Shown: one piece after another, positions 573 to 50,936 of the stretch | How positions within the stretch are numbered: the first letter of the stretch is position 1 | Layout: every line of letters begins with the position of its first letter | Source of the DNA: Pseudeuparius sepicola | Taxonomy: Eukaryota; Arthropoda; Insecta; Coleoptera; Anthribidae | DNA: 64,000 nt | Direction of reading: 5' to 3' | Assembly (NCBI GenBank): GCA_963920635.1 | Contig: OY987301.1 | Span: 42,693,820-42,757,819, forward strand | Notes under the pieces: generated by a model | Databases searched by the model: none | Told to the model about the DNA's origin: nothing | Seen by the model: the letters and a program-made list of their open reading frames with translations, nothing else | Program-made: the position numbers and the translations under genes

Positions 573-1063
573 CTTGAACGCAGGGCCGTGCATAGGGGGG
601 TGCGGTCGGTATAAATTACCGGGGCCCGTGCCCCGTAGGGGCCCGGCGCGTTGTTGGCAATGTCGGCGAGGCATTGACGGGGTTGTATGTAATAATATGT
701 AATATGTAACATGTAAAAAATACCTCTCGCGCTCTTTCCCAATGTCATTATTTCTCTCAGGATTTTTTTGCACTATTCCAGTGACAGTTGCACAAGGAAA
801 AAGGTCATTTAGTACCTTAGCTTGAATAAAAAAAATTCCTAGGTCTACTATGTACCCAGAACGGTTAACAAGTCTAGGAACTCTCGCATTAGAATATTCT
901 TTAGCTCGAAAAAGTAATTTTGACCAAATCATACACAACTTTGCCAATATGAAGGCTCCAAAGTCGACCTACTCTAAATCATAGCCGAACGAGTAACCTA
1001 ACCTATCTAAACACTGTCTTAATATGTAATGTAAATTTTGTGTTTGTGTTGCTTATACAACGC

Positions 1064-1088
1064 GTTTCGGCATGTTTGCCATCATCAG
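1064..1088 (-). ncRNA. Hammerhead-like core (probably degenerate)
   Basis: On the minus strand CTGATGA is followed by T, GGCA, a 4-base loop, TGCC and then GAAAC. This is the order of a hammerhead core: CUGANGA, stem II, GAAA. Stem II has four pairs plus one unpaired base. I could not fold a good stem I from the flanks (the first pair would be C against U), so catalysis is doubtful. It lies inside the hAT-like element, with no Penelope-like coding sequence nearby. Confidence 0.3.
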
Positions 1089-1754
1089 GTATATAAAAGT
1101 TGTAAATATATATAAATGTCATTTATTTTGTAGGGCGAGATTTATACAAAAAGTGACATTTAAAAACATATTTGTTTTCTAATATATCTCAAAATGATGT
1201 ACATCAATAAACAATTTAAAATTCTTTTTTTGAAAACACGATTATTTTTATATATGATAAAAGTTATTAAAAATATATCTGTGCATTGTGTTTTGTGTAG
1301 GTGGTAGTGAAGGAGTGACTCCTTCAACAAAAATTAATATATAACTTTTGGTCGAATCCCAGGATTATTTATTTACAAAACAAGAACGACCAGGAAAAAT
1401 TTTTCTTTTTTAATTAAAAAAAATATATATTATGTAATGTGAGTAGAACGTAAATATTTGAATGAGACCAAAGTTTATTTAATTAATTTTTATTTTTTTA
1501 TGTTTTTTATTTTGTTGAGAGGCAGAAAAATCTACATTTGTTATATCAAATTTAAAATGTAAGTTACTTTTTTATTTCTTAAGTCGTTATGTTTTGTGTT
1601 CCTTATATTTGCAATAGAGGATAAAGACTGTTTGGTTATTTATTTTGTAGGTATACGTAATAAAAGTTCATATTTCCATATGGTTCCTTTGTTTTTGTAA
1701 CACTTTTTGCTTGACGTATTTTTGAAAATGTCAACTTTGTATGTATACAATGTA

Positions 1755-7664: not shown

Positions 7665-8085
7665 TTTTAGTTTGGCCAGGTGTCTGAGTCTATTCATCTC
7701 AGTTAACGCATCATTGTTGCAAGGTCGTTTGCCGGTTAGTTTAGAACAGTCTAGCTCTTCAATGAGGAGACCTTCTAATGACCATCTTGGGTGTTCCGCC
7801 ATGTTGGATTTAGAATGACGTCACACATATAATCATGCATTGTCATCCAAATTAAACGTGTGTACAAAATTTCAGCTCGATCGGTTGAAATTTAACTAGT
7901 CCGCCATCTTGAGTGTTCCGCCATGTTGGATTTAGAATGACGTCACACATATAATCATGCATTGTCATCCAAATTAAACGTGTGTACAAAGTTTCAGCTC
8001 GATCGGTTGAAGATATCTGCTTCAAAATTGAGTTGCAAGATTCCACCCGAACAAATTACATACATACATACATACATACATTGCA
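7665..8085 (+). mobile_element. Non-LTR/SINE-like 3' tail with tandem duplication and (ACAT)n
   Basis: The segment contains ttcagctcgatcggttgaa twice and ends in a run of about six tacatacata-type units at 8057-8080. Low-complexity tetranucleotide tails after a conserved 3' segment are typical of RTE-type non-LTR elements and their SINEs. No reverse transcriptase is present. The assignment rests on the tail alone and is tentative. Confidence 0.4.
7782..8025. repeat. 122-bp tandem duplication, two copies
   Basis: Copy 1 is 7782-7903 and copy 2 is 7904-8025. Both run from ccatcttg through tgttccgccatgttgg to the Gatcggttgaa motif, with only a few differences. Confidence 0.85.
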
Positions 8086-11194: not shown

Positions 11195-11384
11195 TGTATT
11201 TTGTCTCCGGAAAGCGCATGGTGAGCCAAAAAATATCAGACGTGACAGCCGTGAGCAGTTTTTATTAATACGTCGGTCAACCCTAATAGCGTTGACTGAC
11301 GTATTAATAAAGACAAAGACTGCTCACGGCTGTCATGTTTGACAGTTCTCTGGCTCACCATGCGCTTCCCGGAGACAAAATACA
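11195..11384. repeat. Inverted-repeat element, about 190 bp
   Basis: tgtattttgtctccgg with agcgcatggtgagcca at the left returns inverted at the right, ending gacaaaataca. The centre is a second palindrome built on tattaatacgtcggtcaa. One arm also occurs at 16,953-16,992. Confidence 0.75.
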
Positions 11385-11505
11385 GTGCAAAATACATTGT
11401 TCACCATAGGCGCCATCTACTTTCCAGGACATGAAACTATAGCCGTGAGAAGTCTTATTAATACCTCGGTCAACGCTAATATAGTATAAAAAGAGTGATA
11501 GTCGA

Positions 11506-11550
11506 CCATATACAGAGCTGTTTCGGGATGGTAATCCCTCATCAGTATGG
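11506..11550 (-). ncRNA. Hammerhead ribozyme, type I (copy 1)
   Basis: Minus-strand reading: stem I CCATA, core CTGATGA, stem II GGGAT-TACC-ATCCC (five perfect pairs), core GAA, stem III ACAG-CT-CTGT, A as the residue at the cleavage site, and the stem I partner TATGG (five perfect pairs). All conserved core bases (CUGAUGA, GAAA, H before the cut) are present. The flanks add an outer stem I: GTGA and TCAC can pair beyond an internal loop. The very short stem III is what is known for hammerheads of Penelope-like elements and animal retrozymes. Cleavage is predicted after the A that complements position 11,511. Confidence 0.88.
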
Positions 11551-11811
11551 CTCACCCGACTAGCAAGTGGTGTAGACAAACGTGCCTAGACGATCGATTT
11601 ACTATATAAGGAATGAATCAATTACCGAAGCAATTAATTGATCATGGAGTATTATAATGATAGCACACTCGAAGGTGCGGGACAAAGCCACTGGTCTTGA
11701 TCGGCAAAGGCTCACGCCACAATTACCGAGACCCGCCATCTGCCGTCTCCACGGCGTCGGTTAACCAACCGAAAACATCGATAGATTAAAAAGAGTGATA
11801 ATCGACCATAT
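11511..11811 (-). mobile_element. Retrozyme-like unit delimited by two hammerhead ribozymes
   Basis: Two hammerheads on the same strand are spaced exactly 300 bp, cleavage site to cleavage site. About 28 bp beside each (aaaaagagtgata, then tcgaccatatacag) is also conserved, while the sequence between is unique and non-coding. A minus-strand transcript through both would cut itself into a linear RNA of about 300 nt with defined ends. Known animal retrozymes are non-coding, of a few hundred nucleotides, occur as tandem units with type I hammerheads, and are thought to be mobilised by Penelope-like elements. Only one full unit plus the second ribozyme is visible here. Confidence 0.6.
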
Positions 11812-11857
11812 ACAGTACTGTTTCGGGACGGTAATCCCTCATCAGTATGGGATTACC
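11797..11857 (-). ncRNA. Hammerhead ribozyme, type I (copy 2)
   Basis: It has the same organisation as copy 1: CCATA, CTGATGA, stem II GGGAT-TACC-GTCCC (four Watson-Crick pairs and one U-G), GAA, stem III ACAG-TA-CTGT, A, TATGG. Stem I extends outward beyond an internal loop (C opposite TCG) by six more pairs, GGTAAT with ATTATC. The changes relative to copy 1 keep pairing in stem II or fall in the stem III loop, which argues for retained structure. Confidence 0.88.
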
Positions 11858-12611
11858 AAATTATCTTAACGAAAACCTAAATTTATTTATTATTAGATTT
11901 GTCAACAGACCAAAATTTCATACGTGAAGGAGCCACAACTCCCTCATAAGGCATTTATGTTACTTACAATCCCTCAATGTCGCTAATTATGTACTAGTGC
12001 TAGCGGTACATCGACGATTCTTGCCACTTGGTAGGTACAGATGTTTGAGTTGTTCCTTAGACCCATTTGGTCGATTTGGCCCGAAGAACACTGGACATTT
12101 TGCGTGTGGCCATATTTTATAGAGAGGGGGGGTAATTTAATGTTAATATTTTTAAAAAATTAAAAATGGCTCAGAGAGGCGAGCTAAGTGTCGATTGCGC
12201 ATAATTTTGACTCTAGGAATCCAACAATCCAACCGTAGTCCCGGAAATGCGATCCGAGAACCGGAAATCTGAAATGTTTCCAACGCACGCAGGATCATGT
12301 GACATGTCGAGACTTATGTTTTTGAGGTCAGGGTCAGCGAGTTCATTTATGGCAACGAAAGTGACCTTCGGTCAGCGGAACTGGGCTCTAGGCACCGGAA
12401 GGGGGCTCGTGGCACGAAGCACCGGAAGAAGCTCCCATATGCTACACTTTCTGAAGGGGGAACCACAGTAACACACATCACACAGTGTCAAGAAGGATAA
12501 TCAATGCGACATGTTTCAAGTAAATTCAAGTAAGTAGTAGGTGTAATGTTCAATTTTTTTACGAAATAATCGCAAAACTCCTCTCGGGCAGCAGCGCAAG
12601 CTTGTCTGGTT
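11858..12611. other. No recognisable gene
   Basis: An open frame at 12,247-12,471 has no recognisable domain. No element ends or repeats were seen before the hAT target duplication at 12,612. Confidence 0.45.
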
Positions 12612-15632: not shown

Positions 15633-16952
15633 GGTTACGAAAATTCGTAACACAATAATTGGAATCACTCCATTTGCATGCCAATAACCTGTGTGAATCT
15701 GATATCTGGGGGACAAAACATTAGAAAGTCATTTCCCTGGTTTAATTGTACGGAGAAGAGCTCTCCCGCATTTCAATTCGATATAAAGAGTTTTGAATTA
15801 AATTAATTTACAATGATGTGGATGTCGCGGTTCAATAGTTCGTCATGTTTCACATCCTGGGATGTTCTGACCGCTAAATCATAGGCGCAACTACAATACA
15901 AACATGCGTGTGATATAAATACCAAGTATGGTGCGTCCCGGAGTTCCAGTACAAAGAAAGGAGCCAATCCATTTTGGTGTAAGGGGAGTGGTCAAGTAGT
16001 TGCTGCGGCAACTAGGATATCTATTTCGCTGGTGGGGGGGGGCATGATGAGATGCCCTATCTCTCTTCTTCTAACGAGACGTATTACCCAGGTGGGATCA
16101 AGGCCAAATGATGAGATGCCCTATCTCTCTTCTTCTAACGAGACGTATTACCCAGGTGGGATCAAGGCCAAATGGTCCCATGTCCTCACCAGTTTATGGC
16201 TTCCATTATTCCGATTATTATCTATAAGGGAAAGTTCTCTTCCAATTTCACTTAATGATAGATTATTGCTTCTCTCTAAAGGCAAGTATAAACTAGTCCT
16301 GGTGGAGGTAGCGAACCGTTTTGAGCAGGGTTTTCGTGACTCTAGGTTATTCATTTTCTTATCGATAAGCTTCTGCTGATTAGTAAAGTGAACGTAGCTG
16401 AAGCGCCAGCGGTGGAGGCGGTTGTGGAAGGGTAGTGTGGAACTTGCAGAAAAATTATCGACGTTAGATAGTGTTAAAAAATAGTCAGCTGCGTAGAGGG
16501 GGATTGCAAGCCATCTGGTCGTGCGAACTTGCAAAAAAAAACGAATAAATCCAAACAAAGCACGTAACGTATCCATTTTCAAGGATGCTAAATAAGATTT
16601 AGGTACATGATCGTAGTATAGGCTCTGTTTATGAAACTTGTGGGTTATGAATTATGAAATGAAATGCTCCCATAAGCACTTACCCACCTCTCATCATAAC
16701 CGAAAAAGAATCACTGGAATATCTCAAACGCAACATATTTACGAGGGTGTGATGGAATGCACTGTATGTACTAAAAGGACACTTTAAAACCAATGAATAA
16801 AACTGCGATAATTTTACTGCTTATCCCGCAGCCCTAATAAATTACAAAAGGCAAATTGTTTTGTTTCATGATTTTAAAAAAATTGTTATTGTTGGCACAT
16901 TTTTTAAGGTTTCCAGTTTTTTGCATGATGGTCAACAATATATTTTGCATTG
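15633..16952. other. No recognisable gene apart from a tandem duplication
   Basis: Overlapping open frames at 16,032-16,379 (+) and 16,148-16,582 (-) are driven partly by the 64-bp duplication and show no known domain. No intron-exon pattern or element end was identified. Confidence 0.4.
16046..16173. repeat. 64-bp tandem duplication, two copies
   Basis: Copies 16,046-16,109 and 16,110-16,173 are nearly identical, each starting gatgagatgccctatctctc and ending ggccaaat. Confidence 0.85.
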
Positions 16953-16992
16953 TATTTTGTCTCCGGGAAGCGCATGGTGAGCCAGAGAACTG
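16953..16992. repeat. Solo arm of the 11.2-kb inverted-repeat family
   Basis: tgtattttgtctccgg followed by gaagcgcatggtgagcca matches the arm of the element at 11,195-11,384. It lies directly against the truncated 5' end of the errantivirus-like relic, so it may mark an old insertion or deletion junction. Confidence 0.6.
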
Positions 16993-16999
16993 TCAAACA

Positions 17000-17735
17000 T
17001 GTCAACAGTCAACGCTAAATGACAAAACTGTTAGTGACAAATATCCCCTTCCAAACATAACGAACATATTAGACAGGCTAGGACGTGCAAATTAGGTACT
17101 TTACAACACTCGATTTGGCCTCCGGTTATCATCATAAATTGAAGTTGACGAAAATGATGTATCCAAAATTGCATTTTCTACTGATTCTGGACATTATCAA
17201 TTCCTACCAATGCCTTTCGGTCTTAAAAATGCATCAAGTACATTTCAGAGATTAACAGATAATATTTTACGTGGTTTAACAAACGAAATTTGTCTCATAT
17301 ATTTAGATGATATAATAGTTTTCAGTACATCTCTCATCTCTCCAATAACATATAATTAATCTCAAAAAAGTTTTCGCAGACTACGTGACGCGAATTTTAA
17401 AGTACAACCTGATAAATGCGACCTTTTACAAAAAACTGTTGCTTACCTTGGACACATTATTACATCAGAAGGAGTCAAACCCAATCCCGAAAAAATTTCC
17501 TGTATTCAAAAATTCCTAATTCCTAAAACCCAAAAAGAAATAAAGTCATTTCTTGGATTACTTGGATATTACCGCCGCTTTATTAAAGATTTTGCAAAAA
17601 TTACTAAGCCTTTAACTCTCTGCTTAAAGAAAAACGCTCAAGTTACTCACAATCAAAAATTCATAGAAGCTTTCAACACATGTAAGAAAATTTTGTGTAA
17701 TGATCCGATATTACAGTACATATCCCGACTTTTCC
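17000..17735 (+). pseudogene. Ty3/gypsy (errantivirus-like) reverse transcriptase fragment
   Basis: The three frames together show an RT palm of the gypsy/17.6 type: KYPLPNI at about 17,035, [17 protein letters not shown] at 17,205-17,260, the catalytic IYLDD at about 17,300, then FLGLLGYYRRFIKDF near 17,550. The frame shifts at least three times and a stop interrupts the first part, so it is not translatable. The end of the palm and the start of RNase H are cut off, and an env segment follows almost at once. RNase H and integrase are missing, which indicates a large internal deletion. Confidence 0.8.
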
Positions 17736-21552: not shown

Positions 21553-24500
21553 TTATTTATGAACAGGCTTTAAATGGCTCGCATGGAAAGAGCCCCTTTC
21601 TTTTTTAGTCTGGGGGTCCTCCAATACGTAAGTTGCGAAACTGATAAGTTTTTTTATGCGAAAAGGGCCCGAAAAAAGCAACATCATTTTCTTTGTTTCT
21701 GCGGTAAGTGCGGAAGACACGGGATTCATGCGCAGCAACACCAAATCTCCGGGTTCGAAATTACGGTAGGGCCTACTGGGAAAATTGACAGCTCGGCGCG
21801 CGGCCCTGCCTTCAAGGGTCTCCCGGGCTAGCACCAACTTCTCTCCGTGGGACATCGCGTTGGTCCGGCTCTCCGAATCGCGTAGTGGAGGGGGCAACAC
21901 ATAGTTGGTCTCATTGAAATGCAATTCACTGGGGGTGAAGCCAGTCGACTCGTGGACGACATTGTTTAAAAAAAACTCGAAATTACTGACTTCAAACGCC
22001 CATCGGGTATTTTTGTCGTGACAATATGCTCGACACAGCCTTCCTAACTCCCTCATAACGCGCTCGGAAACATTAGATTGAGGGTGACGTATAGAACTAA
22101 AAATCAAATTTATACCCAACGAAGTTAGAGTTGTTTTCCAGGACTTGCTCGTAAATTGTGTGCCATGATCTGATAGTATACTTTCGGGCCGCCCAACCTG
22201 GGGAAAATACTTTAAAACCAACCGGTTGAGGCAAGCACGGGTAGTCGCCTTCCTGAGGGGGTACAGAGCGACGAACTTGGAAAAAACGTCTAGGACCACA
22301 AGTAAGAAAGTAGCGCCTCCCCTGCTGGCAGGCAAAGGCCCGTATAAATCTAACGCGACGAGCTCGCCCTTCGAGTGAGGCACTATCGGATTGATAGGAG
22401 GCTTAGGTAAAACCGCATGCTTAGTTTTTTGACAAATGGCGCATACCCGAACTACCCTCTTTATATCCTTTTGCATATTTGGCCACCAGACTTCTCGCCT
22501 CAGCGCGCACCAGGTCTTGAACACCCCGAAATGTCCGATCCCTTCGTGGAAATATTTACAAAACATCGAGGTCAAGGATTGGGGAACGCAGAGCAAGCAT
22601 GGCTCGTCCATAGCCTGCCGGTAATACAGCAAATCATTCTTCAACACGAAACGCGACCGCAACTCATTGTCCGCGACCCAGGTTTCTATAATATGACTGA
22701 GTTTCGGATCCTCTCGCTGCAAGGACTTAAGGTTTTTCAGCATTCGCTCGAAATCCGGGGGCATTTTAAAATTGGATAATATCTTGAAACATTTATCCGA
22801 AGGTGAGGCATCGAGCGCGCCGGAAAAACGGGACAGAGCATCGGACACGAAGTTCTCTCTGCCCGAGATATATTTAATATCGAAATCAAACTCCTGGAGA
22901 GTAAGCGCCCAACGCGTAATCCGCGGTGACAGCAATCTACACGTATTCAAGTACGTAAGCGCCCTATTATCGGTGAAAAGTGTAAATTTTTCCCCCAACA
23001 GATAAGTGCGGTAACGCTGAATGGCCCACACGGCGGCCAATATTTCTTTCTCGCTCCCGCTGTAGCGCACCTCGCGCGGAAGCAACGTACGACTCGCCCA
23101 AGCGGCAACCTTTTTTTCTCCATCGACTATCTGGAACAAATGCGCTCCGAGCGCGACATCACTTGCGTCCACACACAGATTCCACGATAAGTCCGGTCGG
23201 GGGTGGTATAACATCGTCGCCGATTTCAGTAACGACTTAATCTCGTCAAAAGCGCATTGCTCGGTTTTTCCCCATCGCCATGACTCCTTTTTACGTAATA
23301 ATTTGGTTAGCGGTTCGCAAACGGCCGAAAAGTGAGGACAGAAATGCCTATCGAAATTGCACAACCCTATAAATTTTTGCAGCTCCTTTACATTTCTCGG
23401 AACGCGGTAATCGGATACTGCTTGTACGCGGTCCTCCGATGGGTGAACTCCGTCGGGAGTTATCACGTATCCCACAAACTTAATTTCTGTTTTAAAAAAA
23501 CAACATTTTTTTAAATTTAATTTTAGTCCGCATTCCACCACGCGTTTAAATATTTTCTCTAAGTGTACGAGGTGCTCTTCAAAAGTGTTCGAAAGCACTA
23601 GGACATCGTCTACATAACATAGCAAAAAACCCTTAAACTCTGCACCGAAAACTTTATCTATGCATCTAACAAATGACGACACCGCCGTCGACAACCCAAA
23701 AGGCAACACGCGGAATTGGTAGGTTTTTTGGCCCACCATAAATCCTGTATATTTTTTAGAGTTATCTGACAGGGGTATTTGATAATAACCCATGGTGAAG
23801 TCTAACGTTGACATGAACTTACACCCGCTGATACGCATCAAGATTTCCTCTATCGGGGGTATTCCTTTTGCATAATTTTATTTAGGTACCGGGCATCTAG
23901 GCAAACTCTGACCGTGTTATCTTTTTTCAACGTAGTCATAATAGGGGACACGTACGGCGTAGCGGCCCTTTCGATTATTCCCCAAGTCTCCATGACCCTA
24001 ATAGCCCTATCCACCGCCTCCCTATGCGCTAGCGGCAATGGGTATGGTTTAATAAAAAACTCTTTATCTACCGATAGCTTTATTTCATGGCAATAGTTCT
24101 TTACCAACCCCGGTATGTCGGAGAAAGCCGCGCTATGCACCAGCAAAAACTCGCCGAATTTGCATTTTTGTTGTTCGTTCAGGAAAAAACATTCCGCGAC
24201 AATAGAATGAAATAATTGAGGAGCAGAATTTTCTTTTAAGATATGATTGGTGAGATATAGTTTATCGCATGCCGCTAAGCGTAACTTTAAACTCTCGGGG
24301 AGATCAAATTCGCGAGGAAAATGTTGTTCGGGGATTTCTATTTCTTGATTATCGATCTTACATACTATTCGATGTTTATCTAAATCAATCACGGCGCGAC
24401 AATGCCGCAAAAAGTCTATACCTATGATTACCAGAACAGTCAACCCCGGAATTAATAGAAATTCGTGTTCGAATAAGTAACCTCCCGCTTTGAAGTTTAA

Positions 24501-24830
24501 CAAACATTGTTTTTGCACCTTTCGTTGCCCTGATTTAAAAGCGCCGGATATTTTAACACCCGTACATGCGAGATTTGGAATGTCGTCGTGAAAATCGCTT
24601 AGTTGGGCCCACACTTCCTCGGAAAAACCCGAAACCTGCGATCCGCTGTCAATCAAAGCGGGGAAATAGTGACCGTAAAAATATACTTCAATTTGCGGAC
24701 ATCGCGAAAGTTCCCCCATATGTTTGAAGTCGCAAAAATTTTGTGGTTCCTCCGAGGGAGTTTTTATTATTATTTTAGCCCGTTTATTTTCAGTATCCCC
24801 TACCTCCGGGCTTATTGGAGGGTACTGATT
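21553..24830 (-). CDS. Ty3/gypsy Pol polyprotein (frameshifted)
   Basis: Domains in order: protease with active-site ALIDSGSQ at about 24,650; an RT palm interrupted at about 23,845; catalytic YVDD at about 23,615; RNase H around LCVDASDVALGAH; an H2C2 zinc finger (H-H-C-C, about 22,420-22,540); and an integrase core with D (LDLYGPL), D (LSDHGTQF) and E (SERVMREL). It ends with a GPF-type C-terminal module (GPFRIKK). The part after the break is 762 residues and complete to the stop. The break is a missing base in a run of C, just before an ATG that makes the downstream frame look like a separate gene. Upstream, the frame stays open into the end of gag in the -1 frame, so -1 frameshifting is the probable expression mode. 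The gene makes the enzymes for reverse transcription and integration. Confidence 0.92.
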
Positions 24831-26008
24831 TCGTTTCCCGACTCGTTTTCTTCTGTCTCTACTTCTAAGAACGATATGTTTTTATTATTTCCGAAGTTAG
24901 TGGGAGCATTTGGGTTATTAAATGGCCTCATTTTTTGAACATTTTCGCCATAAATTTGTCTATTTTGGTTCTGTTTGTACGTACTATTGCTATTAGAAAG
25001 ACCCTGACTTGACTTAGGTGATCGGCTAAAATAATATTCGGCTTGTCGCAATTTTTCAAGCGCCTCCCCAAAATTGTTAGAACCAATTAAAACAGCAGAA
25101 ATGTTGGGGGGGTAATGCCTCGAAATTATTTGGATTAACAATTCTGGTTCATATGGGGGTTGAAGATGTTTAGCCAATGACACGTAATAGTTAAAGTGAT
25201 CTACGAACGAACCACTGCTTTGCGAAAAATAAGCAGATTCCAATTTTAATTTTATTTGAAGTTGTTTTGTCGGACTCCAGAAATGCTCTAAGAAGGCTTG
25301 ACGAAATTGTGAATAATTTTGAAAAGTGCTAATGTACGCATCAGCCCATAGTCTGTTTTTTTCGGCAAATAATGGGTTAACAATATAAACAAACTTCCTA
25401 TATGATACATTTTGAACATCAATAAACTCTTCTACCATATTTAAAAAATCCACCGGGTGTACACTCTTATCATCAAATTTCGGAATTTTTTTTAGAACGT
25501 CTTCGTCGAAAACCCTTTCAGGGGGATTTCCACGATTTTGATTTGAATAATTCGCGTTATTTACGCCTAAATTTACTCCTTGCATTTGATGTACCACCTG
25601 AGCAACCAAACGAGTGATGCCTTCGGGAGTAAACAGTGGGATGAGTGGTTCAGTGATGCTTCTGAACGCAGGGAGCCCCTCGGCAGCAACCCCCTGGGGG
25701 GCGCGCGGTGGCTGCTGCGCGAACCGCGGTGGCGGTGCCGAGAACGAAGATGGTACTGGCCTACCTTGTTCGCTCCGTTCGCTGGGTGTTGAGGGTGGTG
25801 GTGGTACCTCGGGGATTAAATTGATTGGAGGGCGCCCGTCGGGGTGTCCTTGGTACTCTCGGACATGTTGAATCCGTTCTCCCAAATGATTGAACATCGT
25901 TGCACGCCTCCGTAAACTATATTCGTGGTTTAATAGTGGCCTTGGAGTATTTTCTCTTGAATTCATTTTTTTTTTGCCACTCGCAAACGTGTGTATACGG
26001 CACACCAA
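24812..26008 (-). CDS. Ty3/gypsy Gag (398 aa)
   Basis: An intact frame begins 37 bp downstream of the 5' LTR. The N-terminal third is rich in proline and low-complexity (many P, Q and A). A helical capsid-like region follows at about residues 170-330, with motifs such as IPKFDDKS, DFLNMVEEF and RQAFLEHFWSP that are typical of insect gypsy capsids. The C-terminus is rich in N and Q and has no CCHC zinc knuckle, which many insect gypsy Gags also lack. It forms the virus-like particle in which reverse transcription occurs. It overlaps the open pol frame at its 3' end. Confidence 0.88.
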   Translation of the reverse strand: MVCRIHTFASGKKKMNSRENTPRPLLNHEYSLRRRATMFNHLGERIQHVREYQGHPDGRPPINLIPEVPPPPSTPSERSEQGRPVPSSFSAPPPRFAQQPPRAPQGVAAEGLPAFRSITEPLIPLFTPEGITRLVAQVVHQMQGVNLGVNNANYSNQNRGNPPERVFDEDVLKKIPKFDDKSVHPVDFLNMVEEFIDVQNVSYRKFVYIVNPLFAEKNRLWADAYISTFQNYSQFRQAFLEHFWSPTKQLQIKLKLESAYFSQSSGSFVDHFNYYVSLAKHLQPPYEPELLIQIISRHYPPNISAVLIGSNNFGEALEKLRQAEYYFSRSPKSSQGLSNSNSTYKQNQNRQIYGENVQKMRPFNNPNAPTNFGNNKNISFLEVETEENESGNEISTLQ

Positions 26009-26032
26009 CGTATACCTCGCTGCGGCCTTGCT

Positions 26033-26042
26033 GTGGGCGCCA
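26033..26042 (-). other. Primer binding site of the nested Ty3/gypsy element
   Basis: Two bases inside the 5' LTR the element sense reads TGGCGCCCAC, with the TGG expected to pair with a tRNA CCA end. I cannot assign the tRNA species securely. Confidence 0.55.
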
Positions 26043-26044
26043 AA

Positions 26045-26461
26045 TGTAACAGAAAAACGTGAGGGGTGTGTTCTGTGGCAAATAAAAATATCCCAGATGG
26101 TCGTCGAGGGTCTACTTTTATTTTGTAGAAAAAAATATGCCCTACAGTGCTGTAGAAAAAAGAAACATAATTAGTTAAATGTTAAACGCTTCAAAAAGTT
26201 ACATGTTCATTACCTGGTACTAAGCCCGCGGTGATTCAAATTTTATATAATGTTGAATATTAGCGTTTCACTATAAAGACACCAGCACAAAGGCTCGACG
26301 ACCAATAACTTGAAACGACCGAAAAAAGCAGCCGCATGGACTTTTTATTTAGAGTGCGTAAAAAGTAAAATTCGCCCGAAAATGAACAAGTGGAGCCATC
26401 TATGGAGCCAACACAACAAATTCAATAACACAACATGACCAAAATGCAGGACTCCGCTACA
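26045..26461 (-). repeat. 5' LTR of the nested Ty3/gypsy element
   Basis: 417 bp, almost identical to 21,059-21,475, with the target duplication gaag just outside at 26,462. Confidence 0.93.
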
Positions 26462-26682: not shown

Positions 26683-27548
26683 TATATACTACTGTATGAA
26701 AATTGCATTCGCAAAACTATCAGCCTTCATTAGAGGCCTCCTATAAAATTTTGCGAACACATCAGATGCGCTGTAAAAATTGATGTGTCTATTCCACTTT
26801 TGTCTAGGACCACCCGGATCCAGCGACTAATAGATTGGGCCGTTGCCTCTCTGTAAGGTTTCTTGTAAGTCAGAAAAAGTTTGGAAAATTTGCCTGCCTG
26901 TCTAATAGCAGCGGTTCGGTTCAAGTAACAATTAAGCGCACTGGCTGCACATAGTTTGGGTTTATCATGAAAAAAAGGTAATGATAATAAAGGTTGGTAT
27001 CTATTTGGAGCTGAAGTCTTGATCCTGGCCGGAACTTTTATTTCTATTTTCTCCCTCGAGATTTCAATATTTTGAACCTCTATTAATGATAATGTTTGCA
27101 CCCTATGTGCTGTTATCAGGGCCATTAACATCGATACTTTCTGAGTCAGTATTTCTAAACTAATAATATCGTTAGGATAACAAGTGTCTAAGTAATTTAA
27201 AACTATAGTCGGGTCCCATGTTACATCGTATTTAGGCAAAGGTGGTCGCAGCTTAGAAATGCCTCTAAAAAATCTTTTGATTTGATGGTCATCGCCAACT
27301 CGTGGCGAAATAAGCATTGCCAGAGCTGACCGTATATTATTCAAGGAGCTATATGACATGCCAAAATTGAACAAGGAAGTTAAGAAGTATAATATGGTAT
27401 GGATATTTAGTTCAAAACAGTTCAATTTCCGTTGGACGCAAAACTCCCACCATAATTTAAACCCGTTTCCATACTGCTTTATTGAGGACTCTGTTAAAGA
27501 CGAGATTAGAATCTCAATCGCCTCTTCAGGAACCCCTTTGATTATCAT
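26683..27548 (-). pseudogene. DIRS tyrosine recombinase (inactivated)
   Basis: The 272-residue frame starts with ATG overlapping the end of the RT gene by 4 bp. It has a SAM-like N-terminal domain and the first catalytic arginine in TAHRVQTLSL (Arg at about residue 149). The expected HxxR box is missing: after FTAH the sequence jumps straight to the region before the catalytic tyrosine, and in a shifted frame. The KFYRRP segment with the presumptive nucleophile tyrosine is still readable in the +1 frame at about 26,735-26,745. I infer a deletion of some 25-35 codons plus a frame change. In DIRS elements this enzyme replaces an integrase. Confidence 0.82.
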
Positions 27549-29395
27549 CGCTTCCCTGATAAGAGCCCTGCTTCCAGGGAAAGTTTCCGGTGCAGAGCAT
27601 GGGGCGTCCTGTCAATGGACAACAATAGGTCGATATTAGGAGAGAATATTATTGACTGTTTAACCAGCAAAACCTTAAATAGAGGGTACCATGGTTGACT
27701 TGGCCAACAAGGAACCACCACGATACCTTCGGCATTATCCGTAATTATTTTTTGTAGAACTTTAGCAACAAGGGAAAAAGGTGGGAAAGCATAGAAGTTA
27801 TAATTAGCCCAAGATATTGTAAATGCATCAACAATTTCGGATTCGGGGTCTCTAAACCAAGAAGCGAATCTTCTGCATTTGGAATTAATTCTGGATGCAA
27901 ATAAATCTATCTCAGGTGTTCGCAATACGCAAATTTCTTTGAACGCGTAATTAGAAATTGTATACTCCGTTTCAGTATCTAGGCAACGGGATTCTTGATC
28001 GGCGACAGTGTTTTCATCTGATTTTATGTAGGAAGCAAATATAAATAAATTACGTTGTTCGCACCACTGCCACATTTCCCTTGCAAGATTGTTAAGATGA
28101 GGGAACTGAATGCCTCCCATCCTATTCACATATGAAATGGCAGTAGTGTTGTCTATCCGTAACAAAATCTCACAGTTTACAAGATCCTTGACAAAACATT
28201 TAAGTCCAAAAAACGCAGCTAAGAGTTCTAAGTAATTTATATGGTTATTCCTATCTTTTCTCGACCAGAAACCTCGGGTCCTACAACCGTTGCAGTATAC
28301 GCCCCAACCCGACCGGGAACTGTCACTGAATATTTCTAGTTTAAAAGTAAAACTATGGAACGTATTTTTGCTAGACAGGTGAGTCTTCCACCAGGCAAGG
28401 TCTATTAAAACTTCACTAGAAATAGTCATATCGTGATTATAAGGCCCTCTCGATCTTCTTAGAGCTAAAAACTTTGCTCTCTCACAGTTTTTGGTATAAA
28501 GCCAACCATATTTAATAGCTGGACATGCAGCGATCAATTTACCTATCAAACTTGCAAACTCTTGAATAGTAAACCTACTACCACTCATAATTTTGAAAAT
28601 ATGTCTTAAAATGCTCTCTTGTTTATCAAAAGGTAAACTCACAGACATATCAACAGTGTTATATAAAAAACCCAGATACTTTATATTTGTGCATGGAGTA
28701 AGTATGCTCTTCTCTGAATTAATTATAAAACCCAATCCTAACAAAAATTTTTTAGTTGCGTTGACGTTCGATAAACACTCCACATAAGAACGACCTAACA
28801 ACAAAAAATCATCAATATACAATACGGATAAGAAACCCCGTTGCCGCAAATAATGTAATACGGGCTTCAGCAGTTTGGTAAACATATAAGGGGCCGTGTT
28901 CAAGCCAAAAGGTAAACAAGTGTATTCATAAATTTGTCCGGCAAACACAAACCTCAGATATTTTTGGTGTTGTTTATGTATTGGGACCAAATAATACGCG
29001 TCTTTGAGATCTAATGATGCAAGGAACATATTTTTTGTCAAAAGCTTGGTGACCATCTTGTGGTCTTCCATTTTAAAATGTTCTGTCTTAACAAACCTGT
29101 TTAGTTCCTTCAGATTTAGAATTAACCTAAATGATCCACCATGTTTGGGTGTTAAAAAAATATTTGAAATAAATTGATCTTATCGATAAGAACATCTCCT
29201 TATGGCCACCAATAAAAGAAGCCTTTTGATTTCGGCATATAAAAAATTTTCTTCCGTTAAGGACCATGATTTACGTTCATTGGGGACATGATTCTGGAAA
29301 GGTTTTTGAGAAAAAGGAATCTTATAACCTTGAATCCATGATAATAAACGTTTATCTGAGGTTAGTGATTCCCAGGAGCGTAAAAAATATCTCAA
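27545..29395 (-). pseudogene. DIRS reverse transcriptase / RNase H / methyltransferase-like protein
   Basis: The main frame (27,545-29,071) holds the RT palm with LYIDDFLLLG at about 28,810, RNase H (SDSSRSGWGVY, ELLAAFFGLK, DNTTAISYVN), and a C-terminal block. In that block DLFASR and DAFTISW are followed by YAFPPF and VVPCWPSQPW. This block corresponds to the DAM-like methyltransferase module of DIRS elements, with FPPF where an active enzyme would have an NPPY/DPPW motif. Upstream, residues for the RT fingers continue to about 29,170. The linker before them (29,180-29,395, starting RYFLRSWESL) is in another frame, so one frameshift and a stop separate them near 29,180. Confidence 0.85.
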
Positions 29396-43534: not shown

Positions 43535-45270
43535 CTACAAATTTTTTTCCACTTCGTGCTTTGTATCTTTGTTGTATAAAAATTTGCAAACTACAAATGT
43601 TCCTTCTTTATAGTTTTCTACATCTGCAGGCAGCGATTCTGTTTCCTCGCAATATTCAACCGCTGAAGGCAACGATTTTGTTTCTTCATAATTTTCTTTA
43701 TTACCTCTTTGATCTTCCACTGTTTCTTGGTTCCTAACAGTGGATTCATCTTCTTGAACTAATGTTTTTGTTCCTTGATTACTTTCCTTTTGACTTTCTT
43801 CATCTTTATTTTTATAAAAAATATCTGTTTTCAATATTGACAGAGGAATATTGTCATCAATATCATCATCTGACTCTGGAAAATGTTCTGTTTCATTAAT
43901 ATCTGGACTCTGCTCTCTTACAATCTCGTTTTGATTGTATCTAGGAGATAAATCGTCACCAGTTACAGCTTTACCGGGTTCTATATTAATTTTTCTCCTC
44001 GTTTGCCGTTTTGGAGCCGTATCGGCCATTCGTGAACTTTTAAGGTGTTCTTCAAATGTTTCACACCATTGGGGGCCACTAGTTTCTGCAGTCTGATGAG
44101 CAGTTGGTAACCTCTTCAACACTTGGTCTTTATCCGAAGGGGCTATCCCACAAGCTTTGAACCCAGATTTTATATTTTGCTCTTCTGTTGCACTTTGAGA
44201 AATTAGGGCTTTATTTAAAAGCATTGGGAAATACTCCTTAGGAATATTTCCACGGTGGCGTTTCTTCCATTCACGTAGTTTCCCTCCAAGCACACTTTAA
44301 TGGACGAAAATAAACGACATCTAAGGGCTGACACAGGTGTGTTGAATTTGCTGGGAGAAATATAAATTTAATATCATGTTCCTCGCATTTGGTCACTACA
44401 TTCAATGATAGATGAGAGGCCAGATTGTCACCAATCAATACTTTTTGCCTTGTTTTTTCTTTAAAAAAGACAGTGCCACTTTACAAACCAATCTTCGAAC
44501 ACAAACGAGTCTAACCAGCCACTGGCGGTTCTATTGTAATAGGCCCCTTTCGGTCCATGCCTTGTCCAAATGTCATGAAGATTCCTAGATTTATATACGA
44601 TGTATATAGGTAGGCGTTCTCTGGAAGCAGAAACTGCAAACATGACTGAAGTACTTGCTTTAGAACTATCCATGATTCTTTCGGCATGTTTTGAGCCTCG
44701 CCTCACTATAACTTTTTGTTGACCGGGATCGTCACTCATATTGGTCTCATCGTAATTTACGATGTTTTCACAAGGTATGCCTTGTAAACTTTGTTCTAGG
44801 TTCTGAAAGTAGCCTTCTATGATTTCCCTTGATATCGCAGCTCTCTGTCGTTTGATATTCTGGCTAAGACGAGCTGACAAAATATTTTTGTTGCGTTTCA
44901 TAAAAGATCTAAACCATTTTGCTCCTGGTCTATTATTTTTAAACCTTTTTTCAACTATGCCTCTTTTGTCCAGATAGCCCATCACTACATCTTTAATGTC
45001 AGTGCTCGTCATCGGATAACCCCAGTTTGATGCAGTTAGTATGCCGTGAATCAAATTGTTTTCGTCTAATTAACTCAAAACAGTTGGCCTACCACTTTTA
45101 GATGAATGCCTTCCCCGGTACTTATCACACAAAGTTGATTTTGGCACTCCATATTTTTCTGATGCCAGCCTCAGTGACAGCTTTCCATTGGCAACATCAA
45201 GGAGGGCCTTTTCCAAGCAATTTTCATCATAGCTAATATATTTTCTACGTTTGTTCTTTATAGGAGCCAT
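43535..45270 (-). pseudogene. pogo/Tigger-like transposase
   Basis: The N-terminal Pipsqueak-type helix-turn-helix (LASEKYGVPKSTLCDKYRG) is at 45,110-45,200. A CENP-B-like DNA-binding region (GAKWFRSFMKRNK) follows. The catalytic core has first Asp in NYDETNMSDDPG, second in IGDNLASH and third in QPLDV, with 35 residues between the last two (DD35D). The C-terminal tail is long and rich in E and K. Lesions: an in-frame TAA at about 45,069 after GRPTVLS, a frameshift near 44,465, and another near 44,290. In an intact copy this enzyme binds the inverted ends and moves the element by cut and paste into TA. Confidence 0.88.
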
Positions 45271-45952: not shown

Positions 45953-46900
45953 ATGGTGAACCCAAATGAAAATACCCATGCTGGCGCCAGGAATAATCAT
46001 GACCAACCTGATGCGGAGGTAGGTGATGCAGCGCATCCCTCAACGGGGCTACAGCATCCAGTATCCCATGCACAAGACTTCCATGTAGACCGTCTCGACA
46101 GACCTGATTTACCTCCTTTTTGGAACAAGAAGGTGCAGCTGTGGTTCACGGCTATAGAGGCACAGTTTCACAGCAAACGAATAACATCTGACTTCGCCAA
46201 ATATACAGCCGTTATCAGTCGATTGGACCAAGACACACTTTCAGTCATCGAACATATAATAGCAAACCCTCCGGCTACCGACAAGTATGGGTGCATCAAA
46301 GAAGCCCTATTGAATCATTTTTCCGAGACTCAAGAGCGCCGATTCAAGACACTGGTCTCAGGCCTCGAACTGGGTGACCGAAGACCCTCGGAACTCCTTG
46401 CAGAGATGCACCGACTGGGTGGAAATCGATTAGATGCAGCTTTCACTAAGACTTTGTGGCTCGACCGCTTACCAGAGAATGTCCAGGTGGCCCTAGCTGC
46501 TGCAGATGGTTTAAGCAACGATGCCTTGGCGCAGTTGGCTGACAAAATAGTAAATATACAATGCCATACTACAGGTGGACGCCTTATGCCAATTTCGAAG
46601 ACAGTACCACTCAACGTGCCCAAACCAGACCTCGAAACCCAAGTTGATGGCCTGACCAAACGTGTCGACGACCTTTCCTTCAAAATTGACCAACTTTTTC
46701 GTCATACTCGCAGTCGTTCCAGTAGCAGGTACAACCGTCACCGTAGTCAGACACCACAGCCAGCACAAACAAACCAGGGAAATGGTAATGAAAACACTGG
46801 AATTTGCTATTATCACCGAAGATTTGCAGGTAACGCTGCTAAGTGTACGAAACCTTGCTCGTGGCAAACCGAGCAGGAAAACTCCAATCCCCGTCAGTAA
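45953..46900 (+). CDS. CsRn1-type Gag (315 aa)
   Basis: An intact frame from ATG about 80 bp after the 5' LTR. The capsid-like region runs from about residue 50 (LPPFWNKKVQLWFTAIEAQF) to about 200. The C-terminus has CYYHRRFAGNAAKCTKPCSW, the unusual C-H-C-C finger that marks CsRn1/Kabuki-type Gags in place of a CCHC knuckle. Between them is a stretch rich in S, R and Q. Its product would package the element RNA. Pol follows in another frame, beginning just past the finger. Confidence 0.9.
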   Translation: MVNPNENTHAGARNNHDQPDAEVGDAAHPSTGLQHPVSHAQDFHVDRLDRPDLPPFWNKKVQLWFTAIEAQFHSKRITSDFAKYTAVISRLDQDTLSVIEHIIANPPATDKYGCIKEALLNHFSETQERRFKTLVSGLELGDRRPSELLAEMHRLGGNRLDAAFTKTLWLDRLPENVQVALAAADGLSNDALAQLADKIVNIQCHTTGGRLMPISKTVPLNVPKPDLETQVDGLTKRVDDLSFKIDQLFRHTRSRSSSRYNRHRSQTPQPAQTNQGNGNENTGICYYHRRFAGNAAKCTKPCSWQTEQENSNPRQ

Positions 46901-46959
46901 ATTCGATGGTTGCTGGCGGCGGCGACACATTCCGTCGACCGAGTCGCCGACTTTTTGTT

Positions 46960-48832
46960 CAAGACTGAGCAACAGGTGTCAGATTCCTTGTTGATAATGG
47001 CGCAGATATCTCAGTCACTCCAGCCACCCGCCAAGACAAGGTGAGACCAGCTCCTCTCTTTCTGTATGCCGCCAATGGTTCCAAAATCCAAACTTATGGT
47101 GAACGAGCTTTGACACTTAACTTAGGCCTCCGCCGACCAATACGATGGGTATTCTGCATTGCCAACGTACCATATCCTATATTAGGCGCAGACTTAATAT
47201 TTTCTCATGGATTACTGGTTGACCTCAAGCACAAACGCATCATAGACCTTAATACAGGATGCGACGCCACAGGAATACTTGCTCCGGCACCAATCACTTC
47301 AGTTACAACGATCAACAACAGTTTCAGATACTCAGAAATTTTGAGGAACTTTCCTGAAGTCCTTGGAAACCCATTCGATTACTCAGCTCCCAAGCATTCT
47401 ATCAAACATCATATCACTACAACAGGACCCCCTTGTTCTGAGCGTGTTAGACCTTTACGACCAGAACGCTTGAAAATAGCTAAAGTCTCATGGTTGAATT
47501 GGGCCACGTTAGACCCTCGAAGAGTCCCTGGGCCAGTCCACTTCATTTGGCATAGAAGAAAAATGGGGATTGGCGTCCTTGCGGCGACTATCGGAAACTA
47601 AACGCTCAAACAGTGCCTGACCGATATCCAATTGCATTGCTTCAAGACTACTCCTCAATTCTACCTGGTAAAACAATCTTTTCCACACTAGACCTTCGAC
47701 GTGCATTTCATCATATTCCAGTTGCCGAAGAAGATATCCCCAAAACGGCAGTGATCACTCCTTTTGGATTATTTGAATTTGTGAATATGCCCTTCGGCTT
47801 ACGCAATGCGGCACAGTCATTTCAGAGATTCATAAATGAACTTTTGAATGGCCTTGATTTTATTTATGCTTACATTGATGACCTCTTAATTGCCTCAAGC
47901 TCGCCAGAAGAACATGAGAAGCACCTTAGCACAGTGCTTGAACGTCTGAAACAATATGGACTCAGTCTCAATGCAAACAAATGCATACTTGGAGCAGAGA
48001 GCGTAGATTTCCTGGGTTATCGCATTTCCGCTCAAGGTTCATCACCCTTACCAGATCGTATCAAAGCCCTACTCGATTTCCCGAAACCTCAAACTATAAT
48101 CGAGCTCAGACGATTCCTTGGTGCTGTGAATTTTTACAGACGCCACATTAAAAATGCGGCGTCAGCTCAAGCACCTTTAAATGAACTACTCAAGGATTCC
48201 AGGAAAAATGACAAACGCCCGGTTCAATGGACACCTGATACAGAAGCAGCATTCGGCTGGGTTAAAAACCAGGTAGCCAATGCCACTCTACTCGCTCATC
48301 CAATCATGTCAGCAGAACTTCGCCTCACCACGGATGCATCAGATACTGCGATGGGAGCAGTACTTGAACAGAAAAGCAACACAGACATTTGGGAACCACT
48401 GGGATTCTTTTCATCGAAGCTTTCACCTGCACAACGAAATTATAGCACGTATGACCGAGAACTCACTGCTGTCTACGAAGCTGTGAAGTTCTTCAGGCCT
48501 TGGTTAGAAGCTAGAGAATTTCACATTAGGACTGATCACAAACCCCTCATCTTTGCATTTCAGCAACGTGCAGATAAAGCATCTCCTAGACAAGTTAGAC
48601 AACTCGGTTACATCAGCCAGTTTACTACAACTTTGAAGTACCTGGCTGGTTCCGAAAATGACGTAGCTGATGCCTTGTCTCGGGTGGACGCTCTGAGACT
48701 ACCAACCGTCATTAACTTCGATGAACTTGCTCGTATCCAGGCAACAGACGAAGAACTTAAGAACTATTTGCAAGCCAACGACACTTCACTGAAGCTTCAC
48801 AAACTGACTTACGGACCAAACCACCATAGACT
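46960..48832 (+). pseudogene. CsRn1-type Pol, protease to RNase H
   Basis: The protease active site reads FLVDNGADISV at about 46,980-47,020, with Asn where retropepsins have Thr or Ser (DTG/DSG). A linker in the frame 47,041-47,601 follows. The RT starts in a new frame at 47,613: [29 protein letters not shown], then the catalytic AYIDDLLI at about 47,870. RNase H has [13 protein letters not shown] and [12 protein letters not shown]. The stretch joining linker and RT is frameshifted and lacks part of the RT fingers. The frame is then cut by the fold-back element at 48,833. Confidence 0.88.
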
Positions 48833-49685
48833 GGGAGATAGTGACAGATTTTTGGACGTGATTTTACTCAGTATGCCTTGCAAACGGCATTATGTGGCAC
48901 ATATTCTCACAATAATAAGGTATGAATCAGAGAGTCATCCTGGGTTCTTCATGTGAAAAACTGAGTTTTCAATTATTCGAAAAATATGCGTTTTGATATG
49001 ATTTTATACAGTCTGCCATGTGTTTTATAATGAACTTCAAAATAAAAAATTCCTCGGAAAAAAATAGGCATACCGTTAGGGTGGGTCCAAAGGGCTATTA
49101 TTGCCACGTGATCTTGTATTTTAATAATTAATTTTTCCACGTTTCTGTACAGGCTGCCAATGAGAAGTATGCAAGTTCTTATTATGAAAATGCTGAAAAA
49201 AAGATGGCATACCTTTCGCGCATGTCCAAGTACTGTTTAAATTGAATGTTATTTAATCATTTAAACGAGTTATTCAATGTAAAGTGTACTTGGACATGCG
49301 CAAACGGTATGCCATCTTTTCTTCAGCAGTTTCATAACAAGAACTTGCATACTTCTCATTGGCAGCCTGTTCAGAAACGTGGAAAAATTAATTATTAAAA
49401 TACAATATCACGTGGCAATAATAGCCCTTTGGACCCACCCTAACGGTATCCCTATGGTTTTCCGAGGAATTTTCAATTAGAATTTCATTATAAAACACAT
49501 GGCAGCCTGTATAAAATCATATCAAAACGCATATTTTTCGAATAATTGAAAACTCAGTTTTTCACATGAAGAACCCAGGATGACTCTCTGATTCATACCT
49601 TATTATTGTGAGAATATGTGCCACATAATGCCCTTTGAAAGGCATACTGAGTAAAATCACGTCCAAAAATCTGTCACTATCTCCC
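48833..49685. mobile_element. Fold-back element, 853 bp, almost entirely palindromic
   Basis: The ends are gggagatagtgacagatttt and its inverse. The two arms are inverted copies to within about 30 bp of the centre near 49,255, so each is about 400 bp. It interrupts pol between RNase H and the integrase zinc finger. I could not identify a target duplication. Frames that cross the junctions (the end of the RT frame; the start of the frame at 49,635) are artefacts of this insertion. Confidence 0.85.
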
Positions 49686-49689
49686 GGTC

Positions 49690-50936
49690 CACCAGGGAAT
49701 CTATTCGATATCAGACCTTTTGTTCCGCAACCATTGTGTCGCCAGGTCTTTGATGCCTTTCACAATTTGGCACATCCTAGTGGGCGAGTTACTAACAAAA
49801 TCATCTCTCAACGCTATGTCTGGCCATCAATGAACAAAGACATAGCTCAATTTTCCAAGAACTGTCTACCTTGTCAATGATCTAAGGTAGGCCGGCATGA
49901 CCACGTTCAACCAGCTTCATTCCTACATCCCGAACAGAGATTCGATCACATACATATAGATTTGATCGGACCACTGCCTGAATCTGAAGGATATAGATAC
50001 TGCCTAACAATAATTGATCGCTTTTCAAGATGGCCAGAAGCAGTACCCATCAAAGATATTACTGCAGAAACAGTTGCCAATGCATTCTTCACGCACTGGA
50101 TAGCTCGGTTTGGTAGCCCCAAGACTCTCACTACAGACCAGGGATCCCAATTCGAGAGCGCCCTTTTCACAGCCCTTTCTCAACTGGTCGGTGGTAAGCG
50201 CATCCGTACAACCGCCTACCATCCGCAGGCCAATGGCTTAGTCGAAAGATGGCACCGCACCTTAAAGGCAGCTATAATGTGTCATCAAACCAACAAGTGG
50301 ACCCAAGTTTTGCCTACAGTATTGCTGGGACTAAGGACCTGCTACAAAGAAGACCTTAAGGCCTCTCCAGCCGAATATCTCTTTGGAAAAACTCTTAGGA
50401 TACCTGGTGAATTTTTCACGCATGAAGACCCACCTGAAGATCCTCACTTCTTCTTGAACCCCTTTCGTCAACATATGCGAAGCATCAAGCCTTTTCCTGC
50501 ATCACATCACTGCAAACAAAAGACATTTTGCTATAAGGACTTATACACGTGCACTCATGTTTTCGTAAGACAGGATGCCGTAAAACGACCGCTAGATCAA
50601 CCATATTCTGGACCCCACGAGGTACTCGAAAGAATCAATGACCGAGTGTTTACCATTAAGATCGACGGCCGTGAAGTCAACGTGAGTATCGAACGACTCA
50701 AACCAGCCCATCTTGCCACTTCCGACGTTTTCGAGAACAATAATCAAGATTCCTCATCCCCATGCACATCGAGGCCACCTCTAACAGGATCGCAACAGCT
50801 TGAAACCTCGACAACACCTCAAGTTCCTGTAAATATCAAGACTTATCCTGGGAAGAAAGTCAGATTTGCCATGGTACCACTTCGTTTAGGGGGGGATGAT
50901 GTGGAGGTCGGATCTAGTCATAATGCTAAATTGTAA
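49690..50936 (+). pseudogene. CsRn1-type integrase
   Basis: The H2C2 finger (HNLAHPSG .. CLPCQ) ends in a TGA stop at 49,878. After it the frame continues in phase through the core: HIDLIGPL, TTDQGSQFES and NGLVERWHR supply the D, D and E residues with the usual spacing. ASPAEYLFGKTLRIPGEF and a GPHEVLERI module follow. The protein frame ends within a few bases of the polypurine tract before the 3' LTR. With the stop and the upstream insertion it cannot be expressed as part of Pol. Confidence 0.88.

What the first reader, a model, noticed from the sequence alone, without database searches (positions are those of the whole stretch)
11501..11857. Two complete type I hammerhead ribozymes exactly 300 bp apart on one strand
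Seen directly: both copies have every conserved core base, perfect or wobble-compatible stems I and II, a short stem III and an allowed A at the cut site. Copy 2 also gains a six-pair outer stem I. The two sites differ in ways that keep pairing. Established: Penelope-like elements and retrozymes carry type I hammerheads with short stem III, and retrozyme transcripts are cut into units of a few hundred nucleotides that circularise. Inference: this is a retrozyme or related circular-RNA repeat with a 300-nt monomer, and the intervening sequence is non-coding. I know of no annotation that would capture it.
Basis: partly seen in the sequence, partly recalled or inferred. Interest (0 to 1): 0.9.

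Follow-up and report, generated by a model that had tools for sequence, protein, structure and literature searches.

The report
Self-cutting RNA element, inserted head-to-head
The two self-cutting RNA motifs belong to a small mobile repeat of a probably animal genome; many of its copies sit as two mirror-image rows, which suggests that a circular RNA was copied into DNA from both sides of a chromosome break at once.

Summary
Two complete type I hammerheads lie exactly 300 bp apart, both on the minus strand (cuts 11511|11510 and 11811|11810); the same descriptor gives 0 hits in 100 simulated windows. Rfam misses them at its own thresholds.

The retrozyme reading is supported: the host genome (769 Mb) holds 467 exact ribozyme cores, reversed control 0, in tandem units of 298-302 bp.

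New is the insertion structure. Of 38 loci from a best-match list, 24 are two arrays in opposite orientation, ribozyme 5' sides inward in 24 of 24; in 20 of the 24 one arm ends at unit position ~270, the other at ~86. With four more loci, 24 of 24 such insertions have 10-14 bp target-site duplications (22 perfect; perfect matches of 10+ in mismatched flanks 2 of 552). Sibling arms share their variant (0 of 20000 permutations, 12 loci).

This points to one circular RNA reverse-transcribed from both target strands at two fixed internal sites, as Penelope-like enzymes do. Circle and enzyme are inferred; the search for the enzyme did not complete. The window copy is diverged and one-armed.

The parts
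11505..11551 (-). Hammerhead copy 1 (3' one in RNA sense); cut between 11511 and 11510
11806..11850 (-). Hammerhead copy 2 (5' one in RNA sense); cut between 11811 and 11810
   Evidence: sub-threshold RAGATH-1 hammerhead match
11511..11810 (-). The 300-nt unit between the two cuts (unit coordinates 1-300 run with the plus strand); non-coding
   Evidence: matched by genomic units
11482..11850 (-). The insertion as far as unit sequence goes: outer end a at 11482 (unit coordinate 272), inner end at about 11850; a single arm
   Evidence: ends aligned with genomic copies; no other arm found; no abutting duplication of 5 bp or more
11598..11611 (-). Place in the unit that corresponds to end b of the genomic copies (not an end here)
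   Evidence: by eye
11851..11866 (-). Flank that can pair as outer stem I of copy 2 but is not unit sequence
   Evidence: against the unit
11455..11481 (+). Host side of end a: a piece like the arm of the neighbouring foldback repeat (11195-11384)
   Evidence: families D3 and I5

Best explanation
The window holds a diverged single-armed copy of a metazoan-type non-LTR retrozyme. Proposed cycle: (1) transcripts of tandem units cut themselves at each hammerhead into 298-302-nt pieces (inferred from intact ribozymes). (2) The pieces are ligated into circles (inferred; shown by others for other species). (3) A reverse transcriptase with an endonuclease, most likely from a Penelope-like element, cuts both strands of an AT-rich target about 12 bp apart and uses both target 3' ends as primers on a circular unit RNA, one at RNA position ~29 (end a), the other at ~213 (end b). 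(4) Each cDNA runs round the circle a variable number of times; the two tandem arrays, in opposite orientation, are joined where synthesis stopped, and repair leaves 10-14 bp duplications. The DNA outcome of steps 3-4 is seen; the circle, the two-primer event and the enzyme are inferred.
For: Order of arms the same in 24 of 24 double-armed loci. One end a and one end b in 20 of 24, never two of a kind in these 24 (L022 set by eye, L044 at 278). TSD of 10-14 bp in 24 of 24 a/b insertions, 22 perfect, against 2 of 552 perfect matches of 10+ in mismatched flanks. Sibling arms share the variant: summed difference 19 against a null mean of 71.5, 0 of 20000 permutations, 12 loci. Within-locus substitutions: 36 of 45 are private singletons and none is shared between loci in several units; e.g. 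17 full units of L025 differ at 3 sites only. Ribozymes kept: 155 of 169 genomic cores pass the descriptor. Both start sites unpaired in the predicted minimum-energy circle. A purified Penelope-like protein extends both target strands and starts at two internal RNA sites (PMC11167929, parts 1-2 of 4).
Against: The 39 fetched clusters come from a best-match list, so young copies are over-represented. Four of 24 double-armed loci (L021, L023, L026, L043) have an atypical second end and no TSD. 14 of 38 loci are single-armed, 4 of 14 with a TSD of 8+. L023 arms differ at 15 sites, and L046 mixes subfamily markers between units. 24 of 54 variable indel columns within loci are shared with other loci. 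Four further loci (L061-L064) are a different, palindromic class with end a on both sides. The predicted circle is not unusually stable (z -0.7, window unit). No RNA data; the GIY-YIG search did not complete.
Confidence: 0.7

Rival explanations
1. Twin priming, or Penelope-type self-priming, on a linear multimeric transcript (sense or antisense) instead of a circle; otherwise the same insertion route.
For: Self-priming on an antisense template is proposed for rotifer Penelopes with head-to-head repeats (PMC3846280, passages). Source arrays are themselves homogeneous, and a linear multimer would also give tandem arms. L023 and L046 show mixed units.
Against: No within-locus substitution is shared between loci in several units (0 of 45), although arrays such as L021 carry several mixed sites. 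Self-priming does not by itself give two fixed outer ends and a TSD on the whole structure.
Confidence: 0.18
2. A foldback-type DNA transposon whose long inverted repeats contain the hammerhead units, moved by a transposase.
For: Mirror-image structure and TSDs; L061-L064 are such palindromic elements carrying a piece of the unit in both arms, copies 99% alike.
Against: In the main class the two outer ends differ (a and b) and the flanks are unique to each locus; TSD length varies from 10 to 14; arm lengths vary from a part of a unit to 14 full units.
Confidence: 0.05
3. LINE-type twin priming in trans rather than a Penelope-like enzyme.
For: Twin priming gives inverted 5' parts with TSDs (PMC2837659, abstract start in listing); LINEs are named as possible drivers (PMC7229834).
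Against: The second start is at a fixed internal site in 20 of 24 double-armed loci, where I recall LINE twin priming to be variable; two internal start sites are reported for a Penelope-like enzyme.
Confidence: 0.15
4. Chance motif or degenerate satellite without ribozyme function.
For: Rfam thresholds not reached; folding z only -1.5.
Against: 0 hits in 100 simulated windows; 143 of 169 genomic cores identical; dispersed insertions with TSDs.
Confidence: 0.03

Closest known systems
Metazoan non-LTR retrozymes (Cervera and de la Pena 2020, PMC7229834; parts 1-4 of 6 and passages read)
   Different: The text I read speaks of tandem repeats and does not mention inverted or head-to-head arrays (term search); here full insertions are mirror-image arrays with two fixed ends
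Penelope-like elements (PMC11167929 parts 1-2 of 4; PMC3846280 passages)
   Same: Head-to-head copies, partial tandems, TSDs of 8-10 bp, an extra 'tail' on one of the inverted ends, two internal RT start sites, AT-rich targets, type I hammerhead
   Different: No coding capacity here; unit 298-302 bp; the two start sites lie 114 (or 184) nt apart instead of the 30-40 bp tail
RAGATH-1 hammerhead (Rfam RF03152)
   Same: Core and stems in the same register at copy 2
   Different: 14.5 bits against a gathering score of 56.3; no match listed at copy 1
L1 twin-priming insertions (PMC2837659, start of abstract in listing only)
   Same: Two target strands prime, 5' parts meet, TSD on the whole
   Different: Here a tandem, probably circular, template and a fixed second start

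Membership tests
Type I hammerhead ribozyme | Conserved core and three stems with open stem I | tested here: met
   155 of 169 genomic cores
Type I hammerhead ribozyme | Rfam gathering score | tested here: not met
Type I hammerhead ribozyme | Self-cleavage | not testable with these tools
Metazoan non-LTR retrozyme | Tandem units of about 170-400 bp with one hammerhead each, many copies | tested here: met
Metazoan non-LTR retrozyme | Low GC and no coding capacity | tested here: met
   45.7% (below 50%, but above the <45% of the paper's figure legend); 4-8 stops per circular frame
Metazoan non-LTR retrozyme | TSDs longer than 4 bp | tested here: met
   24 of 24 a/b insertions; not at the window copy
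Metazoan non-LTR retrozyme | No LTR, primer binding site or polypurine tract | not tested
   no dedicated search
Metazoan non-LTR retrozyme | Circular RNA in tissue | not testable with these tools
   indirect only: one template per locus
Penelope-like insertion route | Head-to-head structure with TSD and two alternative 3' ends | tested here: met
Penelope-like insertion route | A Penelope-like RT with GIY-YIG endonuclease in the same genome | tested here: inconclusive
   PF01541 search did not complete (last try); L054-L058 around a minimal hammerhead show no long ORF in the script listing
Foldback DNA transposon | Identical inverted ends | tested here: not met
   ends a and b differ in 20 of 24 double-armed loci; met by the separate class L061-L064

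The most novel reading that the evidence does not exclude
Retrozyme circles are reverse-transcribed by two enzyme molecules at once, each primed by one strand of the same cut target and each starting at its own fixed loop of a circle, so that a full insertion is a mirror-image pair of rolling-circle arrays. This would be a genomic fingerprint of bidirectional target-primed rolling-circle reverse transcription and would tie retrozymes to Penelope-like enzymes.
Probability: 0.55. Interest if true: 0.85.

Novelty: new variant of a known kind. Interest (0 to 1): 0.72.

Why it matters
Which enzyme mobilises animal retrozymes, and how a circular RNA gets back into DNA, is open: the papers I read name Penelope-like elements only as likely candidates (PMC7229834; PMC7761336, passages). 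Head-to-head arrays with two fixed ends and 10-14 bp duplications give a precise, countable prediction that can be checked in any retrozyme-bearing genome and rebuilt in vitro. They also bear on how Penelope-like elements themselves insert, since their head-to-head copies have been explained by self-priming (PMC3846280, passages).

Tried and rejected
Chance or inert satellite: rejected. Foldback DNA element for the main class: rejected, though L061-L064 are one. Compensatory change between the outer stems of copies 1 and 2: believed at first, dropped because 11851-11866 is not unit sequence. Endless open frame in a 300-nt circle: no, 4-8 stops per frame. Pol III boxes in the unit: no B box; one A-box-like match on the plus strand. 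Unusually stable circle: no (z -0.7 minus, -1.2 plus). Exact core in viral and prokaryote contig collections: 0. Host clue from a protein search: nothing. Other copies in the window: none. A CM built from the two copies finds only those two, which it must by construction. The statement that the double-array pattern was not found in print rests on the searches and on the papers named; supplementary files could not be read, and most papers in listings were not opened.

Full report
WHAT WAS CLAIMED AND WHAT IS THERE. The window (33-43% GC in 4-kb steps) carries two type I hammerhead motifs on the minus strand at 11505-11551 and 11806-11850. The core letters are all present. Inner stem I is CCAUA/UAUGG, stem II five pairs (the fifth U-A or U-G), stem III ACAG/CUGU with a two-letter loop or three pairs with a four-letter loop. 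The cuts are 11511|11510 and 11811|11810, so the unit is exactly 300 nt. The motifs lie in a 70-bp direct repeat, 91% identical. The descriptor finds only these two in 64 kb and none in 100 Markov-simulated windows. Rfam does not report them at gathering; the only hammerhead match in lax searches is RAGATH-1 at copy 2, below threshold but in register (none).

THE GENOME. The genome search was unreachable for many calls. When it answered it placed the window in a genome of 769 Mb in 16 contigs and found 192 matches to 11501-11857, only 40 of 691 candidates being scored. The exact ribozyme core occurs 467 times (229 forward, 238 reverse; reversed control 0 and 0). I fetched the 39 clusters that I could make out in the printed part's list (L009-L047); this is a best-match sample, so young copies are over-represented. 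L036 is a duplicate of L021 and was dropped, leaving 38.

ANATOMY OF AN INSERTION. Units of 298, 300 or 302 bp stand head to tail. In 24 of 38 loci there are two arrays in opposite orientation: left array with the ribozyme on the minus strand, right array on the plus strand, in 24 of 24. In RNA sense the 5' sides meet in the middle and both outer ends are 3' sides. In the places listed (contig 1 and one place of contig 2) I count 14 clusters with both strands within 1.5 kb, and 14 of 14 have this order; four of them belong to the palindromic class below (L061-L064), and four were not looked at. Arms hold from a part of a unit to 14 full units (L025: 14 and 3).

TWO FIXED OUTER ENDS. By script, an end at unit coordinate 268-274 (end a, TAGAACAAAAAGAG) is seen in 30 of 38 loci and an end at 81-92 (end b, TTTACTATATAAGG) in 24 of 38. 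Of the 24 double-armed loci 20 have one of each (L022's end a placed by eye, L044's at 278), none has two of one kind, and four (L021, L023, L026, L043) have end a and an atypical other end. In the RNA of the commonest unit the ends lie at ...GUUCUA|UCGAUG (position 29) and ...AGUAAA|UCUAUCG (position 213), both unpaired in the minimum-energy circle. UCUAUCG is one of four 7-mers that occur twice in the unit, and it touches both sites. The inner junction varies, with short overlaps or fillers of up to 24 bases (BLAST ends).

TARGET-SITE DUPLICATIONS. With exact matching, 19 of 24 double-armed loci have a TSD of 8 bp or more, against 13 of 552 mismatched flank pairs; single-armed loci 4 of 14 against 4 of 182. 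In the 20 a/b loci, 20 of 20 have 11-14 bp (18 perfect, 2 with one mismatch), 81% AT. With four further a/b loci (L065-L068) it is 24 of 24 with 10-14 bp, 22 perfect; by the same rule mismatched pairs reach 10 or more in 16 of 552, perfect in 2 of 552. Loci were chosen by their ends, not by the TSD. The duplication overlaps the element by 0-4 letters at end a and 0-8 at end b (8 was the limit searched), as short primer pairing would give. So the whole mirror-image structure is one insertion.

ONE TEMPLATE PER INSERTION. For 12 loci with full units in both arms, arm consensus sequences of one locus differ by 19 in sum against a null mean of 71.5, 0 of 20000 permutations; without L023 4 against 53.7, again 0 of 20000; 9 of 12 pairs are identical. 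L023 is the exception with 15 differences and has a second fragment beside it. In the 14 loci with at least three full units, substitutions that vary within a locus are 36 private singletons, 2 private in two units, 7 singletons shared with other loci, 0 shared in several units; variable indel columns are 30 private and 24 shared singletons, counted column by column, many from single deletions. L046 mixes subfamily markers between its units. A circle explains this best; a perfectly homogeneous linear multimer or later homogenisation is not excluded.

MECHANISM. Metazoan retrozymes are published as type I hammerhead repeats expressed as circles of about 170-400 nt, with Penelope-like elements as likely drivers (PMC7229834, parts 1-4 of 6; PMC7761336, passages). 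A purified Penelope-like protein cuts and extends both strands of a target, prefers AT-rich DNA, and starts reverse transcription at two sites inside the RNA, which matches the optional tail of its genomic copies (PMC11167929, parts 1-2 of 4). Rotifer Penelope copies have inverted, mostly head-to-head repeats, 8-10 bp TSDs in the cases quoted, and a tail on one of the inverted ends (PMC3846280, passages). The insertions here show the same signature on a ribozyme unit. My reading: both target 3' ends prime on a circular RNA, one at a and one at b; each cDNA rolls round; the free ends are joined. Shown: the DNA structure. Inferred: cleavage, circle, simultaneous priming, enzyme. The GIY-YIG search of this genome did not complete (last try).

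THE WINDOW COPY. Its left boundary, 11482, is an end a. Unit letters stop at about 11850, no second arm follows, and no duplication of 5 bp or more abuts it. Its identity to the copies listed is mostly 95-97%, while many other copies are identical to each other. It is therefore a diverged, single-armed copy, and copy 2's outer stem I is not original. The canonical outer stem is GAUAGUCG/CGACUAUC, with a possible five-pair contact between GGUGA in the stem I bulge and UUACC in loop II (by eye); about 40% of hammerheads are predicted to use such a pseudoknot (PMC3088659, passages). The stem III letters ACAGUACUGU of the common unit are a perfect palindrome, so two RNAs could also pair there.

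NOVELTY. The element is a new member of a known kind, the metazoan retrozyme. The two-ended, mirror-image, probably rolling-circle insertion pattern I did not find described for retrozymes in the searches and papers named, so I rate it a new variant.

Noticed in passing
window 1054-1093 (-): A third, minimal hammerhead of the kind known from Penelope-like elements (5-pair stem I, one bulged base before stem II, stem III ACGCGU); Rfam Hammerhead_1 at 11.7 bits, below its gathering score of 34; same class of hit 3 times in 200 simulated windows. Its surroundings (960-1200) are a repeat with 40 matches, 40 of 157 candidates scored.
   Followed up: partly
L054:4139-4840: The minimal-hammerhead repeat occurs here as an inverted pair inside a 702-bp palindrome, again head-to-head; no long RT-like ORF was seen in the script listing.
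   Followed up: partly
L061-L064 (contig 1): A second vehicle: four copies, 99% alike, of a palindromic element of at least 850 bp that carries the hammerhead piece of the unit in both arms, with the same flanking sequence on both sides; probably a foldback-type element that took up a retrozyme piece.
   Followed up: partly
window 11195-11384, 11455-11481, 16928-17004: A foldback repeat with inverted arms and related pieces; the hammerhead insertion abuts one such piece. Rfam shows weak plant-miRNA-precursor matches on its hairpin, far below threshold.
   Followed up: no
window 27548-29179 (-) and 26733-27611 (-): Reverse transcriptase and RNase H-like ORF (RVT_1, RVT_3) next to a recombinase-like ORF (my reading of the translation, no family match), as in DIRS-like elements.
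   Followed up: no
window 21553-26170 (-) and 45953-50936 (+): Long ORFs that read like Ty3-type gag-pol (from the translations; not scanned against families).
   Followed up: no
window 44464-45069 (-): DDE_1 transposase fragment (PF03184), pogo-like by recall.
   Followed up: no
window 7782-8011: A 122-bp unit in about two tandem copies, 98% alike.
   Followed up: no
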